From the NCBI RefSeq assembly GCF_017355525.1, contig NZ_CP067395.1, positions 5,282,501-5,346,500 of the forward strand: 64,000 nucleotides of DNA. The letters run 5' to 3'. Source of the stretch: Lysobacter enzymogenes. GTDB lineage: Bacteria > Pseudomonadota > Gammaproteobacteria > Xanthomonadales > Xanthomonadaceae. Each line of letters opens with the position of its first letter. The first letter of the stretch is position 1. The translations under genes and the position numbers were made by a program. Of the stretch, positions 5,603 to 41,549 are shown piece after piece. The notes under the pieces are model-generated. The model worked only from the letters and a program-made list of their open reading frames with translations. It searched no databases and was not told the DNA's origin.

Positions 5603-8600
5603 ATGCAGGCAAGGCTGTTATGCGCGCCGCCGCGGTCGGGCGCGCCGCGCCCGCGCGCGCGGCTGCGGGCGCTGCTGTGCGCCGGCCTGGCCGCCGCCGC
5701 GTCCTGGCTCGCCGCGCCGCCGGCCGCTGCCGGCGTGCCCGAGGCGCCGCGCGCGCGCATCATCGGCGTCGCCGACGGGCTGCCGTCGAGCAAGGTCAAC
5801 GGCATGGCGTTCGACCATGCCGGCTACCTGTGGCTGGCGACCACCGACGGCCTGGCCCGCTACGACGGCGTCGGCATGAAGGTGTGGCGGCACGTGCCGG
5901 GCGACCCCGGCTCGCTGCCCGGCAACGACCTGACCCTGGTCAACGTCGACGACCGCGACCGCATCTGGGTCGCTGCCGAGGGCCGCGGCCTGAGCATGAT
6001 GGACGCGCACCGCGAAGGCTTCGTCCATTACCGCCGCGCCGAGCATCCGCAGATCGGCAGCGACGACACCTTCACCGTCGCCAGCCGCAACGGCGAGGTC
6101 TGGTTCGGCACTTACGGCGGCGGCCTGCACCGGATCGACCGCAACGGCCGGATCGAACGCTTCATGCCCAAGGACGGCGACCCGCGCAGCCTGCCGTCGC
6201 CGACCGTGCTGACCCTGAGCTTCGATGCGCGCGGCGAGTTGTGGATCGGCACCTTCAAGGGCCTGGCGCGCTGGACCGGCCACGATTTCGAACGCATCGC
6301 CCTGCCGGGCGACGACCCGGCGCCGTGGGTGTTCTCGATCGCGCCGGTCGGCGAGCAGCTGTGGATCGGCAGCAAGACCGGCCTGCACCGGCGCGAGCGC
6401 GACGGGCGCTTCAGCGATCCGGACTACAGCGGCATGTTCGCCCAGCTCAACGCGGTGCTGAGCCTGGCGCCGGACCGCGACGGCAGCTTCTGGCTCGGCA
6501 CCCAGCGCAGCATCTGGCGGGCCACGCCGCAGACGGTGCCGGCGCCGATGGCGCTGGGACCGGCGCGGCCGGCGCGGCCGGTGCAGCAGATCGTCGGCCA
6601 GGACGACGGCTCGTTCTGGTTTCCGCTGGCCGGCGTCGGCGTCGGCTACCTGCGTCCGGACTGGCGCCGCATCGCCCAGTACTCGCGCGAACGCGGCAGC
6701 CTCAGCAGCGAGCTGTACACCGCGCTGGCGCCGTCGGCGCGCGGCGGCTTCTGGCTGATCGGCGCGCGCGGCGAGATCGAGCGGCTCGGCCAGGACGGCG
6801 TGGTCGAGCCGGTCAGCGAAGGCCCGCACGACGCGCTCGGCAAGGGCGGCATTCCGAACACCGCGGTCGAGGACCGGCAGGGCCGGCTGTGGGTGGCGAC
6901 CAGCCGCAACAACCTGATCCGGATCGATCCGTCCGGCGCCTGGCGCGACTGGGGCGAGACCGCGCCCGACCCGGTCCTGCCCGGCGAGCCCGACCGCATG
7001 GCGATCGCGCCCGACGGCTCGCTGTGGATTTCCTACCTGACCCAGGGCCTGCAACAGCGCGACCCCGACAGCGGCCGGGTCCTGGCCACGATCGCGGTCG
7101 GCCCGGAGCAGGGCATCGGCAACGGCGACTTCGACAACATCGGCTTCGCCCCCGACGGCACGCTATGGATCGCCTCCGGCGAAGGCCTGCTGAGCCGCGA
7201 CGCCAAGCGCAACGTCATGGCGCCGGTGCCGGGCCTGCCGCGCGACCGCGTGTTCGGCTTCGTGTTCGAGAACAAGGACAGCCTGTGGCTGCAACGGCTC
7301 AACGGCCTGGAGCGCTACCAGCGCGAAGGCGGCCGCTGGGAACTGCGCGACCGCGCCGGCGTGGAGCGCGGCATTCCCGCGGTCGAAGGCAGCGGCCTGT
7401 TCCGCGACCGCGGCGGGCGGCTGTGGCTGCCGACCGCGCGCGGCCTGTTCCGCTGGGATCCGCAGCAACTGCGCCTGCGCCGCTTCGGCGTGCAGGACGG
7501 CATGAGCAGCCAGGAGTTCCTGCGCCGCGCCAGCGTGCTGACCGCCGACGGCACTCTGGCCGCGTCGCTGTCGGACGGCAGCGTGGTGCTGATCGACACC
7601 GCCTGGCCGGATCCCAAGCCGCGCCAGCCGCGGCTGGTCTGGCACCAGCTCGACGTGCGCCGCCACGGCCGCTGGGTGCCGCTGCCGCTGAGCCGGCCGG
7701 TGCGGCCGTCGGGCTCCGAGCGCGCCTCGCGCTACGAAGCGCTGCCGACCCTGGCCCCGGACGACCGCGAGATGCGCGTGCAGATGCGCCTGCTGTCGTT
7801 CGACGATCCGCAGGCCAATCGCTACTACACCCGCCTGGAAGGCTACGACAGCGACTGGGTCGCGGTCGGCGAGAGCGGCGAGCGGGTGTTCGCCGGCCTG
7901 CCGTCGGGCAGCTACGTGCTGCACGCGCGCGCGATCGACGCCAGCGGCAACACCGCGGCCGAGCGCTTGCTGGAATTCAACGTGCGTCCGCCGTGGTGGC
8001 GCACGCCGCCGGCGCTGGCGGCGCTGCTGGGCCTGCTGGCGCTGGCGGGCTGGTGGGGCACGATGCTGTACCGGCGGCGATTGGCGCGCCGGCTCAACTG
8101 GCAGCGCGCCGAGCACGAGCGCGAAGTGGCCAAGCAGGCGTCGCTGGCGAAGACCCGGTTCCTGGCGACGCTGGGGCATGAGGTGCGCACGCCGATGACG
8201 GGCGTGTTGGGGATGAGCGAGTTGCTGCTCGAGACGCCGTTGGATCAAAAGCAGCGCGGCTACACGGAATCCATCCGTCGCGCTGGCGAACACCTCTTGC
8301 GGTTGGTCAACGACGCGCTGGATCTGGCCCGGATCGAATCGGGCAAGCTCGAACTCGCGCACGAACCGTTCGACCTGCGCGCGCTGGTCGCGCAGGCCGC
8401 GGACCTGATGCGGCCGCTGGCGCAGCAGCGCGGTTTGCGCTTCGACGTGGACGTGGCCGCCGACGCGCCGGGCGGCCTGCGCGGCGACGCCAGCCGGGTC
8501 TGTCAGGTGCTGCTGAACCTGCTCGGCAACGCGATCAAGTTCACCGACCAGGGCTCGGTCACGCTGCGCGTGGAGCGGCTGAGCCCGCACGGCGTGCGTT

Positions 8601-9253
8601 TCGAAGTCAGCGACACCGGCCCGGGCCTCAACGAAGAACAGAAGCAGCGCCTGTTCCGCCGTTTCGAACAGGCCGAAGGCGCGCGCACCGCGGCGCGTTA
8701 CGGCGGCAGCGGGCTCGGGCTGGCGATCTGCCAGGAACTGGCCGCGGCGATGGAAGGGCAGATCGCGGTGCACAGCGAACCCGGCCAGGGCGCGCGCTTC
8801 GTGTTCGACCTGCCGCTGCACGAGGCGCAGGCGCCGACGCCGGCCGCGACCGCGGCCGAGCCGATGCTGGCGCGGCCGCGGATCGGCCCGCGCGCGGTGT
8901 TGCTGGTCGAAGACGATCCGACCGTGGCCGAAGTCATCGCCGGACTGCTGCGCACCCAGGGCCACCGCGTCGCGCATGTCGCCAACGGCCTGGCGGCGTT
9001 GGCGGAAACCGCGACGGCGCGGTTCGACCTGGCCCTGCTCGATCTCGACCTGCCCGGCATCAACGGCCTCGACCTGGCGCGGCAACTGCGCGCGCAGGGC
9101 TTCGCCCAACCCTTGGTCGCGGTGACCGCGCGCGCCGACGCCGAGGCCGAACCGCAGGCGCGCCGCGCCGGCTTCGACCGCTTCCTGCGCAAGCCGGTGA
9201 CCGGGGCGATGCTGGCCGAGGCGCTGGGCGAGATGTTCGACCCCGACGAGTGA
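5603..9253 (+). CDS. Hybrid sensor histidine kinase/response regulator, propeller type (copy 1)
   Basis: A 1216-residue membrane hybrid kinase starting at ATG 5603 after GGAGGG. Order: signal peptide (about 1-40), a long sensor of repeated LWIGT/LWLAT propeller blades, a Y_Y_Y domain (YYTRLEGYDSDWVAVG), one membrane helix near 800-822, coiled linker, HisKA with phospho-His859 in LGHEVRTPMTG, HATPase_c with NAIKFTD and DTGPGL, and a receiver with Asp1147 in LLDLDLPG and Lys in RKPVTG. There is no DNA-binding domain, unlike the HTCS proteins of Bacteroidetes, so output must go through phosphotransfer to another protein or stop at the receiver. The ligand is unknown; related propellers sense sugars or other extracellular cues. 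First of three tandem paralogues. Confidence 0.93.
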   Translation: MQARLLCAPPRSGAPRPRARLRALLCAGLAAAASWLAAPPAAAGVPEAPRARIIGVADGLPSSKVNGMAFDHAGYLWLATTDGLARYDGVGMKVWRHVPGDPGSLPGNDLTLVNVDDRDRIWVAAEGRGLSMMDAHREGFVHYRRAEHPQIGSDDTFTVASRNGEVWFGTYGGGLHRIDRNGRIERFMPKDGDPRSLPSPTVLTLSFDARGELWIGTFKGLARWTGHDFERIALPGDDPAPWVFSIAPVGEQLWIGSKTGLHRRERDGRFSDPDYSGMFAQLNAVLSLAPDRDGSFWLGTQRSIWRATPQTVPAPMALGPARPARPVQQIVGQDDGSFWFPLAGVGVGYLRPDWRRIAQYSRERGSLSSELYTALAPSARGGFWLIGARGEIERLGQDGVVEPVSEGPHDALGKGGIPNTAVEDRQGRLWVATSRNNLIRIDPSGAWRDWGETAPDPVLPGEPDRMAIAPDGSLWISYLTQGLQQRDPDSGRVLATIAVGPEQGIGNGDFDNIGFAPDGTLWIASGEGLLSRDAKRNVMAPVPGLPRDRVFGFVFENKDSLWLQRLNGLERYQREGGRWELRDRAGVERGIPAVEGSGLFRDRGGRLWLPTARGLFRWDPQQLRLRRFGVQDGMSSQEFLRRASVLTADGTLAASLSDGSVVLIDTAWPDPKPRQPRLVWHQLDVRRHGRWVPLPLSRPVRPSGSERASRYEALPTLAPDDREMRVQMRLLSFDDPQANRYYTRLEGYDSDWVAVGESGERVFAGLPSGSYVLHARAIDASGNTAAERLLEFNVRPPWWRTPPALAALLGLLALAGWWGTMLYRRRLARRLNWQRAEHEREVAKQASLAKTRFLATLGHEVRTPMTGVLGMSELLLETPLDQKQRGYTESIRRAGEHLLRLVNDALDLARIESGKLELAHEPFDLRALVAQAADLMRPLAQQRGLRFDVDVAADAPGGLRGDASRVCQVLLNLLGNAIKFTDQGSVTLRVERLSPHGVRFEVSDTGPGLNEEQKQRLFRRFEQAEGARTAARYGGSGLGLAICQELAAAMEGQIAVHSEPGQGARFVFDLPLHEAQAPTPAATAAEPMLARPRIGPRAVLLVEDDPTVAEVIAGLLRTQGHRVAHVANGLAALAETATARFDLALLDLDLPGINGLDLARQLRAQGFAQPLVAVTARADAEAEPQARRAGFDRFLRKPVTGAMLAEALGEMFDPDE

Positions 9254-36477: not shown

Positions 36478-36969
36478 ATGATCGAAGACATCGAAGTACT
36501 CAAAGACACCGAACTCGCGTTCGGCGGCAGGCCGCGGCCTGTGGTTCTGGTCAAGGACGGGCCGGTCGATGAGATTCGCAAAGACGCCGAGGCCGTATCG
36601 GGTCTGCGGTGGTCCGAAATCGATTGCGAAACGCTCGAAAAATATCCCGATTGCATTTATGGCTTCACTTCGGAGGGCTTTCGTTACTTCCTTCCTGGGG
36701 TGATTTGCGCGAGCGTTCGCGAACGGCGGCCCGATCTGTTGGTCGTCGATTCGCTGGTGCAGCAGCTCGATCGCAGCGGCGATCCCGAAAACTGGGACGA
36801 TTCTTTTGCCGAACGATGGCCGCTTCTCGATCCGGACGAGTGCGCGGCAGTGTCGAAGTGGATTCTGTGGCTTTCCGAGCGAAGCGACTTCCCCGATCCA
36901 TTCGATTCGCTTGGACGGGCTTTGGATCTGCTTGTGATCCTGAGGCGACGAGCGTCGCTCAGAACTTGA
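36478..36969 (+). CDS. Hypothetical protein, possibly DUF6714-like
   Basis: A 163-residue acidic cytoplasmic protein. The segment LRWSEIDCETLEKY, then GFTSEGFRYFLPGVICASV and WPLLDPDECAAVSKWILWL, resembles small proteins in which a phenylalanine/leucine-proline helix pair is conserved (I suggest DUF6714, from memory and unconfirmed). No catalytic residues are evident. Codon use is noticeably less GC-biased than its neighbours (for example many GAT, TTT and TTG), which hints at horizontal gain. It overlaps the end of the convergent gene at 36959 by 11 bases. Confidence 0.72.
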   Translation: MIEDIEVLKDTELAFGGRPRPVVLVKDGPVDEIRKDAEAVSGLRWSEIDCETLEKYPDCIYGFTSEGFRYFLPGVICASVRERRPDLLVVDSLVQQLDRSGDPENWDDSFAERWPLLDPDECAAVSKWILWLSERSDFPDPFDSLGRALDLLVILRRRASLRT

Positions 36970-37855
36970 TGTCGAGATTGAACCCGGCCCGCCCGCTGAA
37001 ATCGCCGGTAAACGTATCCACCCGCCCGCTGCCGTTCACGCTGAACGAAGTGCCGTCGGCTTTGTACTCAGCGCCGACGACGCCGTTCACGCTGTTGATG
37101 CCCTGTTGGTCGACGCCGACGCCGACTCGCGCATAACCGCTCCAATCGACCGACAAGGGCGCGCTGATGCCGGTATTGAAGCTGCCCGCGGTGAAGCCGC
37201 TGGGGTTGAACTGGACGCTCAGACTGGCATCGAGCTTGCCGAAGTCCAGTTCTTTCGCGGCAGTGACGGTGGCGCCGAAATTCGGCTCGGCGACGCCGCC
37301 GAACGGGCCGGCGAAAGCGCTGATGCCGTAGCTGTCGATGCCGTTGGTGTAGCTCACCGCGCCGGCGAAGGTGACTTGCGCGGGCGCGATGCCCATGCGC
37401 GCCTCGATGCTGGCGTTGACGTCGCCGACGTAGTTCAAGCCGAAATTGACCGAAACGTCGCTGAGCGCCGCCTTCGCCACCGCGGCCGGATCGTTCGGAG
37501 TGATGTTGAACGTCGGCGACCACGCGTTGTATTCGTCGATCGCCGGCGCGGCGGGCTTTTGCGCGACATCGGCGTAAGTCGTCGGCGTCGGCACGCCGCC
37601 GAGGGTGTTGAACGAGGACAGGTTCGGCACCGTGTCGACCGTCATCGCGTTGAGTTGCGACAGCGCGGCGGGCGAAATGCTGAGGTCGACAGGGGCGGTC
37701 AGGTTCGGATCGAGCGCGGCGGCGGCGACCGCGTCCGCGGCGGCCTTGTCGGCGGCGGCCTGTTGCGCGGCTGCGGTTTCGGCGGCGCGGCTGGCGGCCT
37801 CGGCGGCGCTGCGCGAGGAGTCGGAGCCGGAAACGCCGTTGCTTGCGTCTGCCAT
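36959..37855 (-). CDS. Hypothetical beta-rich protein with Ala-rich N-terminus
   Basis: A 298-residue protein that I do not recognise. ATG 37855 has AAGGAGG upstream. Residues 14-48 are an Ala/Asp-rich helix; the middle is Pro/Thr/Asn-rich; from about 130 the sequence has alternating strands rich in Gly, Asn and aromatic residues (VNFGLNYVGDVNASIE, SVQFNPSGFTAGSFN, RVGVGVDQQGINSVNG, FSGRAGFNLDIKF). The C-terminal Phe after alternating residues resembles an outer-membrane beta-barrel end, but no signal peptide is present at the N-terminus, so the location is uncertain. Confidence 0.7.
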   Translation of the reverse strand: MADASNGVSGSDSSRSAAEAASRAAETAAAQQAAADKAAADAVAAAALDPNLTAPVDLSISPAALSQLNAMTVDTVPNLSSFNTLGGVPTPTTYADVAQKPAAPAIDEYNAWSPTFNITPNDPAAVAKAALSDVSVNFGLNYVGDVNASIEARMGIAPAQVTFAGAVSYTNGIDSYGISAFAGPFGGVAEPNFGATVTAAKELDFGKLDASLSVQFNPSGFTAGSFNTGISAPLSVDWSGYARVGVGVDQQGINSVNGVVGAEYKADGTSFSVNGSGRVDTFTGDFSGRAGFNLDIKF

Positions 37856-38228
37856 GAGAACACCCTCCTTGGGGGAGCGGCCGGCGGGGCCGGTTCGCGG
37901 TGAAAGCGTTTTCCAAGCCGACCCTAGCAAGCGGGCGGGGCCGGCGAGTACCTGGGGCGGACCCCAGCCCGGACCGGTGTAGGCTCCAGGGTTAAGCGTC
38001 TAAATATTTGAAAATTATGGGCTTTATACGGAATCTCGGCGGCTGCCAAGGCGCTGTCCGGCGACGAGCGGTGCGCTCGGCGGAGGCCGCAAGGCCGTTC
38101 CCCCGGCGCCGTCGCCCGGCGCGCGGGCTTGCTAACGCCCGCACATGCTTCGATCCTTCCCGGTCCGCCCGAGCGCCGCATCGTCTTGCGCGCGCGGCGT
38201 TTTCCCACCGTCGCCGCGCCGCTTCCGC
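37856..38228. other. Divergent gap with an AT-rich island
   Basis: About 370 bases between the beta-rich protein gene and the ATP-grasp operon. Near 38000-38029 it becomes strikingly AT-rich for this genome (TAAATATTTGAAAATTATGG), with an AAATATTT palindrome. It probably holds one or both divergent promoters, though no box pair is convincing. No small gene is supported. Confidence 0.45.
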
Positions 38229-39386
38229 ATGCCCAACGTCCTGATCCTCGGCGCCCGCGCGCCGGCCGCGCTCGAAATCGCCCGCCGTTTCCGGGCGAGC
38301 GGTGGCGTTGCGCTGGCCGCCGACAGCGTCTCGTGCCGGCTTACGGGCTGGTCGAACGCGAGCGATGCGAGCCTGCGCATCGCCGGCCCGCGCTTCGACG
38401 CGGCGCAGTACGCCGCCGATCTTGCGCGCATCGTCGCCCAGCGCCGCATCGATCTGGTCGTGCCGACCTGCGAGGAAGCGTTCTGGCTCTCGCGCTACCG
38501 CGGCGCGCTGCCGGACAGCGTGCGCGTGCTGGTCGACGAGTTCGACAAGCTGCGCGAGCTGCACAGCAAGCTGCGGTTCCTGGAACTGGCGCGCGATTGC
38601 GGCGCCGGCGTGCCCGACAGTGCTGCGGTGAAGACGCTCGAACAAGCGCGCGCCTGGGCTGCCGGCCGGCCGCTGGTACTCAAGCCCGAATACTCGCGTT
38701 TCGGCGTACACGTGCGGCTGTATCCGCACGGCATGCCGGCCGATGCGCCGCCGCTGCCGCTGGCTCAAACCTGGGTCGCGCAGCGCTTCCACGCCGGCAC
38801 CGAGCTGTGCTCGTACAGCGTCGCCGACCGCGGCCGCCTGCTCGCGCATTCGGTGTACCGCCCGGCGTACCGGCTCAACCGCAGTTCGAGTTTCTATTTC
38901 GAACCCGCGCCGAACACGGCGATCCGCGCCTTCGTCGAGCGCTTCGTCGGCAAGATCGCCTACACCGGGCAGATTTCGTTCGACTGGATCGTCGCCGGCG
39001 ACGGCAACGCGACGGTGCTGGAATGCAATCCGCGCGCAACCAGCGGCGTGCATCTGTTCGGCGAGCGCGACGCCTTGCCGGCGGCGCTGCTCGGCGAAGA
39101 CATCGCCTGCGTCGAAGCGCGGCCCGCGCGGCCGCGCATGCTCGCGCCGGTGATGCTCGGCGCGGGCCTCGCGCAAGCGCTGGCGCAGGGCCGCGCGCGC
39201 GCGTGGCTGCGCGACTGGCGCCGCGCCGACGACGTGCTGGCCGTGCCCGGCGACCGCGCGCCGCCGCTCGGCGCGTTGGTCGATCTGGGCGCGTACGCGT
39301 GGTCCGCGCTGCGCCGCGGCGGCAGCCTGCGCGAGGCGGCGACGCGCGATATCGAGTGGGACGGCGAGGAGTTGCCGGACCTGTGA
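38229..39386 (+). CDS. ATP-grasp-family ligase
   Basis: A 385-residue ATP-grasp protein: an N-terminal Rossmann-like domain (MPNVLILGARAPAALEIARR) followed by the central and ATP-grasp domains, with LVLKPEYSRFGVHVRL (ATP-binding Lys), WVAQRFHAGTELCSY, and FDWIVAGDGNATVLECNPRATSGV with the metal-binding Glu/Asn. The family joins a carboxylate to an amine or other nucleophile through an acylphosphate. Substrate unknown. First gene of a three-gene operon with a GNAT and a Rieske oxygenase. ATG 38229 has no strong ribosome binding site; upstream starts look like shadow. Confidence 0.88.
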   Translation: MPNVLILGARAPAALEIARRFRASGGVALAADSVSCRLTGWSNASDASLRIAGPRFDAAQYAADLARIVAQRRIDLVVPTCEEAFWLSRYRGALPDSVRVLVDEFDKLRELHSKLRFLELARDCGAGVPDSAAVKTLEQARAWAAGRPLVLKPEYSRFGVHVRLYPHGMPADAPPLPLAQTWVAQRFHAGTELCSYSVADRGRLLAHSVYRPAYRLNRSSSFYFEPAPNTAIRAFVERFVGKIAYTGQISFDWIVAGDGNATVLECNPRATSGVHLFGERDALPAALLGEDIACVEARPARPRMLAPVMLGAGLAQALAQGRARAWLRDWRRADDVLAVPGDRAPPLGALVDLGAYAWSALRRGGSLREAATRDIEWDGEELPDL

Positions 39387-40495
39387 CCGCGCCGGCGCGC
39401 AACGACGACGAGTTCGCGCGCCACGTGGAGGCGTTCGCGCACATCCACGTCGGCGCCGATTCGCGCGCGCTGGTCGCCAACCTCGCGACCCGGGCGGAAC
39501 TCGTCGGCGACGGCGAACGCCGCTATCCGGCCAGCGTCGACGACGGCGACATCGACGGCAACGCCTGGGTCTGTTCGCCGCGCACCACCTACGGCGATTA
39601 CGCGACCGAGGAAGCCGTGCGCTACGCGCCGGCCGCCGCGACGCCGCTGCTGCGCGCGGCCGGGCGCGGGCTCGACGGCTGGCTGCGCCGCGCCGGCATC
39701 GACCGCGCGGTGGCGATCAACAATTGGTGGCTCTCGACCAATGTCTATCCGCAATGGCGCGCAGGCGAGGCGGCGCGATTGCTGGGCGAAGCCCTGCAGC
39801 GCTGGCCGACCCACGCGGTGTGGCTGCGTTCGCTCAACCGCGACCAGCACGCGGCGTGGCTCGCCGAATGCGAGGCGCTCGGGTTCGCGCTGATCCCGAG
39901 CCGGCAGGTGTATCTGTTCCGCGATGTCGCCGGGTCGGCGCAGCGCCGGCACAACCTGCGCATGGATCTGAAGCTGGCGGCGAAGCGGCCCGGGCGCGCG
40001 CACGACGGCGATATCGACGAGGCCGACTACGCGCGCATCGCCTGGCTGTACGAACGCTTGTACATGGACAAGTATTCGGGCTTCAACCCGCGCTACGGCG
40101 AGCGCTTCCTGCGCGAATGGCACCGCGCCGGCCTGCTGCGCTTCGACGGCTTCCGCGACGAGTCCGGGCAGTTGCTCTGCATCGCCGGGGTGTTCGGCTT
40201 CGGCGGCACCGCGACCACGCCGATCGTCGGTTACGACACCGGCCTGCCGCAGCGCCTCGGGCTCTACCGCTTGCTGACCGCGACCACGTTCGAACGCGCC
40301 ATCGCAACCGGCGACACGGTCAACTTCAGCGCCGGCGCGGCCGAGTTCAAGCGTTTGCGCGGAGGCGAAGCCAGCATCGAATACAGCGCGGTCTACGTGC
40401 GCCACATGCCGGCACGAACGCGCCGCGCGGTGGCGGCGCTGTCGGCGCTGACGCGCCGGGTCGGGGTGCCGATCATGCGAAGATTCGGGCTATGA
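39383..40495 (+). CDS. GNAT/FemAB-like acyltransferase
   Basis: A 370-residue protein starting at GTG 39383, overlapping the ATP-grasp stop as GTGA. It has two GNAT-type halves in the manner of FemAB/Acetyltransf_6 proteins: an N-terminal domain with WLSTNVYPQWRAGEAARLLG, then LRMDLKLAAKRPGRA, MDKYSGFNPRYGERFLREWH, and the beta-rich YDTGLPQRLGLYRLLTAT. Such enzymes transfer acyl or aminoacyl groups to amines. No acetyl-CoA loop is clear. Probably acts with the neighbouring ligase and oxygenase on the same small molecule. Confidence 0.82.
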   Translation: MTAPARNDDEFARHVEAFAHIHVGADSRALVANLATRAELVGDGERRYPASVDDGDIDGNAWVCSPRTTYGDYATEEAVRYAPAAATPLLRAAGRGLDGWLRRAGIDRAVAINNWWLSTNVYPQWRAGEAARLLGEALQRWPTHAVWLRSLNRDQHAAWLAECEALGFALIPSRQVYLFRDVAGSAQRRHNLRMDLKLAAKRPGRAHDGDIDEADYARIAWLYERLYMDKYSGFNPRYGERFLREWHRAGLLRFDGFRDESGQLLCIAGVFGFGGTATTPIVGYDTGLPQRLGLYRLLTATTFERAIATGDTVNFSAGAAEFKRLRGGEASIEYSAVYVRHMPARTRRAVAALSALTRRVGVPIMRRFGL

Positions 40496-40535
40496 AGCCC
40501 AAGCATCGAGCCGCCGCCGCCGGAGCGCCGCGCGC

Positions 40536-41549
40536 ATGAGCGACTGGCATCCCTCGCATGCCTCGCGCTGGTTCGCGGCGTTGTGCAGCGATCGCCTGCG
40601 CGGCGCGCCGGTCGCGGTGAGCCTGCTCGGCCGGCCGTACGCGCTGGCGCGCGATGCCGCCGGCCGTGCGTTCGCATTGGAAGACCGCTGCCCGCACCGC
40701 CACGCGCCGTTGTCGCACGGCGTTTGCGGCGCGAGCGGATTGGTCTGTCCGTACCACGGCTGGCGCTTCGACGCGTCCGGCCGCCTGTGCGAGATCCCCG
40801 GCCTGCCGGCCGACGCCGCGCTGCCGCAGGTGCGCGTGCGTGCCGCGGCGGTGCGCGAGCACGACGGCTTGATCTGGCTGCGCGCCGACGGCCGCGACGA
40901 GGGCGAACTGCCGGCGATGGCGCTGCGCAATCCGCCCGGTTCGCGCCGCTTTCTGTGGCAGACGCAGTGGCGCGCGCACGTGGTCGATGCGATCGAGAAT
41001 TTCCTCGATCCCTTGCACACCCATTCGATCCATCCGGGACTGGTGCGCCGCGGCGGCGCGCGGCAGCCCGCGACGGCGCGATTCGTGCCGTCGCAACAAG
41101 GCTTCTGCGTCGACTATCTCGGCCAGCCCCAACAGTCGGGCTTGCTGTACCGCCTGTTCGAATCGCCGCGCGAAAGCGAGCGGGCGCTGTTCGACGCGCC
41201 GGGCAGCGCGCAGATCGAATACCGCTACGCCAACGGTGGCGTCGTGCGCATCAGCCTGCATTTCGCCCCGCACGATGCGGCGACCACCTCGGTGTTCGCC
41301 AGCCTGCACGTGGAAAACCGCTGGGCGCCGGCGTGGCTGGTGCGCGCGTTGGTGTGGCCGTTCTTGAAACGGGTCAACGACCAGGACGCGCGCATGCTGG
41401 CGCTGCAATCCGACAATCTGCGCCGTTTCGGCGCGGTGCGCGGCGCTTCCACGTCGCTGGACCTGGTACGGCCGTGGGTCCAAGCGTTCTGGACCCACGG
41501 CGCGCCGCCGGCGGACGCGCAGGCCAAGGACGTCGCGCTGATGCTGTAG
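40536..41549 (+). CDS. Rieske non-heme iron oxygenase (alpha-subunit-like)
   Basis: A 337-residue oxygenase. The Rieske centre uses CPHRH (Cys52, His54) and CPYHGW (Cys71, His74). The mononuclear iron site is NFLDPLHTHSIHPG with Asp158, His161 and His166. It resembles single-component or ring-hydroxylating alpha subunits of the phthalate/VanA group, used in hydroxylation, demethylation or desaturation. No ferredoxin or reductase gene is adjacent, so electrons must come from elsewhere. Third gene of the ATP-grasp/GNAT operon, 40 bases downstream. Confidence 0.9.
   Translation: MSDWHPSHASRWFAALCSDRLRGAPVAVSLLGRPYALARDAAGRAFALEDRCPHRHAPLSHGVCGASGLVCPYHGWRFDASGRLCEIPGLPADAALPQVRVRAAAVREHDGLIWLRADGRDEGELPAMALRNPPGSRRFLWQTQWRAHVVDAIENFLDPLHTHSIHPGLVRRGGARQPATARFVPSQQGFCVDYLGQPQQSGLLYRLFESPRESERALFDAPGSAQIEYRYANGGVVRISLHFAPHDAATTSVFASLHVENRWAPAWLVRALVWPFLKRVNDQDARMLALQSDNLRRFGAVRGASTSLDLVRPWVQAFWTHGAPPADAQAKDVALML

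What the first reader, a model, noticed from the sequence alone, without database searches (positions are those of the whole stretch)
38229..41549. Three-gene ATP-grasp / GNAT / Rieske-oxygenase operon of unknown product
An ATP-grasp ligase, a FemAB/GNAT-like acyltransferase (overlapping GTGA) and a Rieske oxygenase 40 bases later form a compact operon with an AT-rich divergent region. The set could join an amide bond, transfer an acyl or aminoacyl group, and hydroxylate or demethylate a small molecule. All three keep their catalytic motifs (ATP-binding Lys, Rieske Cys/His pairs, D-x2-H-x4-H iron site). No redox partner gene lies nearby. I know of no described pathway with exactly this trio, so it is my best candidate for an undescribed small biosynthetic system.
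Basis: partly seen in the sequence, partly recalled or inferred. Interest (0 to 1): 0.75.

Follow-up and report, generated by a model that had tools for sequence, protein, structure and literature searches.

The report
Uncharacterised aminoacyl-lipid-type gene cluster
Three neighbouring Lysobacter genes, one thought to join amide bonds, one to transfer amino acids and one to add oxygen, look like the tail end of a larger gene set found in quite different bacteria; it probably makes a small fatty-acid and amino-acid compound that I could not find described.

Summary
The trio is real: ATP-grasp 38229-39386, double-GNAT protein 39383-40495 (GTGA overlap), Rieske oxygenase 40536-41549, motifs intact. 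The window is Lysobacter. Of 149 Xanthomonadaceae genomes, 15 have the ATP-grasp, 14 a strong GNAT hit and 12 a strong Rieske hit; in those 12 all three are linked. The trio is not the whole system. In 11 of the 15 a ketoacyl synthase III, an OleD-like reductase and an MBL-fold hydrolase lie directly upstream; the other 4 are of the window's genus. Plasmids of Burkholderiales, Rhizobiaceae and Paenibacillus carry related operons with an added CoF-synthetase-like enzyme. Lysobacter keeps a separate KAS III-reductase-MBL locus in 12 of 13 trio-bearing and 0 of 7 trio-less genomes, but such sets also occur without the trio elsewhere. The GNAT model best resembles aminoacyl-tRNA-dependent Sba18/Sbb17, FemX and MprF, the ATP-grasp model GAR synthetase and PylC. 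Best reading: an NRPS-free pathway making an acyl-aminoacyl small molecule, finished by a Rieske oxygenase. Product and substrates are unknown. I found no description in the open papers searched.

The parts
37980..38019 (.). short AT-rich stretch (GC 0.35) between the divergent gene and the operon
   Evidence: no sigma-70-like site
38229..39386 (+). ATP-grasp ligase, 385 aa, PRK06849-like; predicted carboxylate-amine ligase
   Evidence: model pLDDT 92.9; fold matches GAR synthetase and PylC
39383..40495 (+). double-GNAT-fold transferase, 370 aa, GTG start overlapping the ATP-grasp stop; predicted Fem/MprF-type aminoacyl transferase
   Evidence: model pLDDT 95.2; fold matches Sba18/Sbb17, FemX, MprF
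40536..41549 (+). Rieske non-heme iron oxygenase, 337 aa, VanA-like C-terminal domain

Best explanation
The three genes are the joining-and-tailoring half of an NRPS-independent biosynthetic pathway. Shown: the genes form a tight, conserved unit; in relatives they follow KAS III, an OleD-like reductase and an MBL hydrolase, with an added adenylating enzyme in seven non-Xanthomonadaceae operons viewed. Inferred from families: KAS III and the reductase make a beta-hydroxy acyl chain; MBL frees or trims it; ATP-grasp activates a carboxylate as acyl phosphate and forms an amide with an amine or amino acid; the double-GNAT protein adds an amino acid taken from aminoacyl-tRNA, as FemX, MprF and the streptothricin enzymes do; the Rieske enzyme hydroxylates, desaturates or demethylates the result with electrons from a reductase encoded elsewhere. 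In Lysobacter the acyl-building step may come from the separate KAS III-reductase-MBL locus near 2.14 Mb. The likely product is a small acyl-aminoacyl (lipo-amino-acid-like) metabolite.
Confidence: 0.5

Rival explanations
1. The GNAT protein uses an acyl-CoA or acyl-ACP donor and acylates an amino acid; the ATP-grasp then extends it. The product would be an N-acyl amino acid or ornithine-lipid-like membrane lipid, and the Rieske enzyme would play the part of a lipid hydroxylase.
Against: Whole-length fold matches favour tRNA-dependent enzymes over N-myristoyltransferases by about 2-4 Z units, and the C-terminal helix is basic in most rows (median +6, range -1 to +9).
Confidence: 0.25
2. In Lysobacter the trio has been detached from the ancestral operon and now modifies a different, pre-existing molecule; the KAS III-reductase-MBL locus is unrelated to it.
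For: The trio sits at one chromosomal site, without KAS III in the stretches fetched, in 13 of 13 trio-bearing Lysobacter genomes. The separate KAS III locus is a divergent paralogue that occurs without the trio elsewhere and is absent from G340.
Against: 12 of 13 against 0 of 7 co-occurrence within the genus, the absences falling in two clades. All three genes keep their motif residues, so this is not decay.
Confidence: 0.2
3. The trio modifies an envelope lipid or other large molecule in place (MprF-like aminoacylation) rather than making a free small molecule.
For: MprF is among the closest folds.
Against: The GNAT model is a compact two-domain fold with no extra membrane region (my reading). 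The ATP-grasp, KAS III and CoF-like partners in relatives suggest synthesis from small precursors.
Confidence: 0.1

Closest known systems
tRNA-dependent GNAT-fold enzymes of natural products (streptothricin Sba18/Sbb17, DhpH/DhpK, VlmA, PacB) and FemX/MprF
   Same: double-GNAT fold over most of the length; basic C-terminal helix; an invariant Lys near the place of FemX Lys305 (PMC12945691 passages)
   Different: no convincing sequence similarity to solved members; partners are ATP-grasp, KAS III, MBL and Rieske; that review has 0 occurrences of Rieske and of ATP-grasp in its main text
ATP-grasp amide ligases (PylC, L-amino acid ligases RizA and that of B. licheniformis, GAR synthetase)
   Same: whole ATP-grasp ligase fold and Lys, Glu, Asn, Arg motif residues
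   Different: 11-18% identity; nearest family model PRK06849 has no assigned function
OleABCD olefin / beta-lactone pathway
   Same: a thiolase-superfamily condensing enzyme, an OleD-like reductase (199.9 bits) and, outside Xanthomonadaceae, an adenylating enzyme
   Different: reductase far below the OleD cut-off of 580; KAS III is FabH/CorB-like; MBL and CoF-like enzymes in place of OleB and OleC; joined to ATP-grasp, GNAT and Rieske
Rieske oxygenases of the VanA/DdmC/NdmA/SdmA type
   Same: Rieske plus VanA_C domains, all metal ligands kept
   Different: the best-scoring PDB match (NdmA) covers only about 150 residues; 71.5 bits against a cut-off of 600 for the best NCBIfam model, SdmA
Predicted non-ribosomal peptide operons of PMC2922099 (passages seen)
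   Same: operons with ATP-grasp peptide ligases plus a Rieske protein, and Fem-type GNAT ligases using aminoacyl-tRNA
   Different: theirs centre on an oxygenase-cupin protein or a MetRS paralogue; no KAS III, OleD-like, MBL and CoF set in the passages I saw

Membership tests
Rieske non-heme iron oxygenase (alpha-type) | Rieske domain plus catalytic domain above curated cut-offs | tested here: met
   PF00355 68.8 bits (cut-off 20.3), PF19112 36.7 (cut-off 23.5)
Rieske non-heme iron oxygenase (alpha-type) | 2Cys-2His cluster ligands and 2His-1Asp iron ligands | tested here: met
   C52, H54, C71, H74, H161, H166, D284 and bridging D158 invariant in 12 of 12; the roles of the residues are recalled
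NCBIfam PRK06849 (NF005315) | score at or above the curated cut-off of 406 bits | tested here: not met
   314.9 bits over residues 3-382: a relative, not filed as a member
Fem/MprF-type aminoacyl-tRNA transferases | double-GNAT fold | tested here: met
Fem/MprF-type aminoacyl-tRNA transferases | active-site Lys (FemX Lys305) and basic tRNA-binding helix | tested here: inconclusive
   Lys323 invariant in 59 of 59, helix median charge +6 (range -1 to +9); correspondence to FemX Lys305 not aligned residue by residue
Fem/MprF-type aminoacyl-tRNA transferases | use of aminoacyl-tRNA as donor | not testable with these tools
   needs an enzyme assay
OleABCD pathway | reductase at or above the NCBIfam OleD cut-off (580) | tested here: not met
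   199.9 bits for the Paraburkholderia reductase, the only one scanned
TIGR02304 F390 synthetase-related protein as operon member | present in the genome | tested here: not met
   387.5 bits in Paraburkholderia (cut-off 251.9), but no match in 9 of 9 Xanthomonadaceae genomes tested including the window's; the control rang in 4 of 14 genomes
Known anti-phage defence systems (PADLOC-DB) | match to a PADLOC model | tested here: not met
   0 families for all 3 proteins at E 0.01

The most novel reading that the evidence does not exclude
An unrecognised, cross-phylum class of non-NRPS natural product in which an acyl chain built by a stand-alone KAS III, OleD-like reductase and MBL module is joined to amino acids by an ATP-grasp ligase working with a translationally coupled aminoacyl-tRNA-dependent double-GNAT enzyme. 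The last steps are swapped between lineages: Rieske oxygenase, DUF3419 aminocarboxypropyl transferase, or SDR plus flavin oxidoreductase. In Lysobacter the pathway is split over two chromosomal loci.
Probability: 0.35. Interest if true: 0.75.

Novelty: new variant of a known kind. Interest (0 to 1): 0.6.

Why it matters
If right, this is a family of biosynthetic gene sets that rules for NRPS, PKS or RiPP clusters would probably miss (my inference; no such program was run). It is found in Xanthomonadaceae, Burkholderiales, Rhizobiaceae and Paenibacillus, with the ATP-grasp/GNAT core also in Deinococcus, and would join fatty-acid chemistry to charged tRNA. Lysobacter enzymogenes relatives are known producers of antifungal and antibacterial compounds (recalled), so the product can be looked for directly. 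The swaps of tailoring genes around an ATP-grasp/GNAT core make a natural comparative series.

Tried and rejected
Chance neighbours: rejected, because the order recurs in 12 of 149 family genomes and the 4-base ATP-grasp/GNAT overlap is kept in 21 of 21 distinct fetched loci in which the two are adjacent on one strand (start codons were chosen by my script nearest to the homologous start).

Anti-phage defence: no PADLOC match.

A CoF-synthetase-like gene in Xanthomonadaceae: none in 9 of 9 genomes. The gene between GNAT and Rieske in the five g183 genomes is not this enzyme but a membrane GGDEF protein, named by eye from its translation.

Ole pathway or alpha-pyrone synthase membership for the condensing module: the reductase is below the OleD cut-off; KAS III resembles MxnB/CorB by sequence, but I did not test the diagnostic Glu described in PMC4578411 (first of three parts read), and a reductase in the operon argues against simple pyrones.

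Class-level scan was too evenly drawn to help: GNAT in 1 of 185, ATP-grasp in 6 of 185 (5 besides the window's own, all weaker), and Rieske hits in 101 of 185, mostly short partial matches.

Literature: no description of this gene set found; one search was about the KAS III relatives only (PMC open-licence library; subscription papers and supplements not searched). An amidoligase paper that I recall was asked for by PubMed id and is not held.

Sequence searches of solved structures gave no useful hit for GNAT and only weak ones for ATP-grasp. Promoter and terminator scan: nothing.

Full report
What is there. The three ORFs exist as described: ATP-grasp 38229-39386, GNAT 39383-40495 with a GTG start overlapping the previous stop, and Rieske 40536-41549, 40 bases later. 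Codon-position GC (GC3 0.88-0.90) fits real genes. The window lies at 5.28-5.35 Mb of a 5.95 Mb contig. The nearest named relative of the GNAT in the species collection is Lysobacter enzymogenes ATCC 29487 at 87% identity, so this is a Lysobacter.

Families and motifs. ATP-grasp matches NCBIfam PRK06849, a hypothetical-protein family, nearly end to end but below its cut-off (314.9 against 406 bits). The window's GNAT has no convincing Pfam or NCBIfam hit. Rieske matches PF00355 and VanA_C above cut-off. Alignments of relatives found here show the ATP-grasp motif residues (17 of 17), the Rieske and iron ligands (12 of 12), and 24 invariant GNAT columns, the start Met included, over 20 sequences.

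Co-conservation. In 149 Xanthomonadaceae genomes drawn by the tool, ATP-grasp was found in 15, GNAT in 16 (14 strong, 2 weak) and Rieske at E <= 1e-20 in 16 (12 strong, 4 partial). All three are linked in 12: seven contiguous, and five (genus g183, probably Xanthomonas) with a GGDEF gene between GNAT and Rieske. Two more have ATP-grasp and GNAT without Rieske (G232, G310), and one has ATP-grasp without a GNAT hit (G262, 86% complete). The ATP-grasp/GNAT overlap is 4 bases in 21 of 21 distinct fetched loci where the two are adjacent on one strand, two Deinococcus plasmids included; in Paenibacillus the two genes are apart, and in Shinella, Roseateles and Rhizobium BT03 they are on opposite strands. 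Named sources in these lists include Xanthomonas, Stenotrophomonas, Pseudoxanthomonas, Ralstonia, Massilia, Undibacterium and Paraburkholderia.

The trio is part of something larger. In 11 of the 15 ATP-grasp genomes a KAS III, an OleD-like reductase and an MBL-fold protein lie directly upstream on the same strand, often with overlapping ends; the four exceptions are the members of the window's genus. In public plasmids tblastn found 12 records; I viewed 9. Paraburkholderia has KAS III, reductase, MBL, CoF-synthetase-like (TIGR02304, 387.5 bits), ATP-grasp, GNAT, and a Rieske gene split over two frames. Shinella zoogloeoides, Roseateles (label doubtful) and Rhizobium BT03 have KAS III, reductase, MBL, CoF-like, GNAT, Rieske, and ATP-grasp convergent. 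Rhizobium NIBRBAC000502774 and Shinella oryzae have DUF3419 before the GNAT and neither ATP-grasp nor Rieske in the stretch. Paenibacillus has KAS III, ATP-grasp, reductase, MBL, CoF-like, GNAT, then an SDR and a flavin oxidoreductase. The two Deinococcus plasmids have only ATP-grasp and GNAT. So ATP-grasp/GNAT is the most constant pair, though each can be missing, and Rieske is a variable tailoring gene.

Lysobacter. In 20 genomes of the genus, 13 have the ATP-grasp. In all 13 the three genes lie together beside the same flank (a DUF4153 protein, then genes I recognise as TagI-, YqgE-, YqgF- and PyrB-like), and a pilU-like gene is seen on the other side within the fetched stretch in 11 of 13. 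The 7 trio-less genomes show the same neighbourhood without the trio. A second KAS III, followed by an OleD-like reductase and an MBL protein with a TetR regulator, sits far away at about 2.14 Mb in the window's genome. At E <= 1e-60 it is present in 12 of 13 trio-bearing and 0 of 7 trio-less Lysobacter genomes (Fisher p 1e-4, not corrected for kinship). On an unrooted tree of three marker genes the trio-less genomes form two clades, each nearest to trio-bearing ones (support 0.99 and 0.88), so there are at least two shared changes. Against a functional link: this paralogue is only 41-44% identical to the operon-linked KAS III; G230, G278 and G304 of other genera have such a locus without the trio; seven more genomes (four of g192, three of g189) have a related KAS III at 44-55% without the trio, with MBL and reductase beside it in the four stretches viewed; and G340 has the trio without it.

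How it most likely works. Shown: conserved linkage, intact motifs, fold classes. Inferred: KAS III plus reductase make a beta-hydroxy acyl chain, MBL frees or trims it, ATP-grasp makes an amide, GNAT adds an amino acid from charged tRNA, and Rieske oxidises the product. In Lysobacter the acyl part may come from the second locus. I give this 0.5; the main rival is acyl-CoA-dependent N-acylation giving a lipid (0.25).

Novelty. I found no description of this gene set in nine full-text searches of open-licence papers. The closest idea in print that I saw is the prediction of ATP-grasp operons with a Rieske protein and a different core (PMC2922099, passages). The enzyme kinds are known and the combination is new to me, hence 'new variant of a known kind'.

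Noticed in passing
L049 (G000:C1:2135000-2153000), KAS III at 8225-9205: A second KAS III-reductase-MBL-TetR locus in the window's own genome; its KAS III is present in 12 of 20 Lysobacter genomes, and similar loci occur in G230, G278 and G304 without the trio; possibly a separate pathway of its own.
   Followed up: partly
L053-L056 (G200, G246, G243, G196): KAS III-MBL-reductase sets without ATP-grasp, GNAT or Rieske in two other Xanthomonadaceae genera; what they make is open.
   Followed up: no
L026-L030, between GNAT and Rieske: In five genomes of one genus (probably Xanthomonas) a membrane GGDEF protein gene sits inside the operon, hinting at cyclic-di-GMP signalling tied to the product.
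   Followed up: partly
L036 (G262), 5696-7719: Where no GNAT was found, a PlsC-family acyltransferase and an alpha/beta hydrolase follow the ATP-grasp.
   Followed up: partly
L042, L045, L061, L062: A DUF3419 or DUF3419-like gene sits directly upstream of distant GNAT relatives with no ATP-grasp found in the stretch; in L061 a thiolase gene lies further upstream.
   Followed up: partly
L032-L036, upstream of KAS III: A conserved divergent Xre-type HTH regulator precedes the operon in five Xanthomonadaceae genomes (four copies 57-79% identical to that of L034).
   Followed up: no
L037 8080-9049: The Paraburkholderia Rieske gene is split over two reading frames and not listed in the record's gene table; it may be a pseudogene or a sequencing error.
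   Followed up: no
L040 (Roseateles sp. XES5 plasmid) and proteins P0006/P0132/P0244 (Pseudomonas sp. CGJS7): Organism labels look doubtful: the first carries a Rieske protein 85% identical to Shinella's and is flagged UNVERIFIED_ORG; the second encodes proteins 76-79% identical to this Lysobacter's.
   Followed up: no
window 36959-37930 (-): A divergent 323-aa gene without any Pfam match accompanies the trio in the trio-bearing Lysobacter genomes (39-66% identity) and was not detected in the 7 trio-less stretches.
   Followed up: partly
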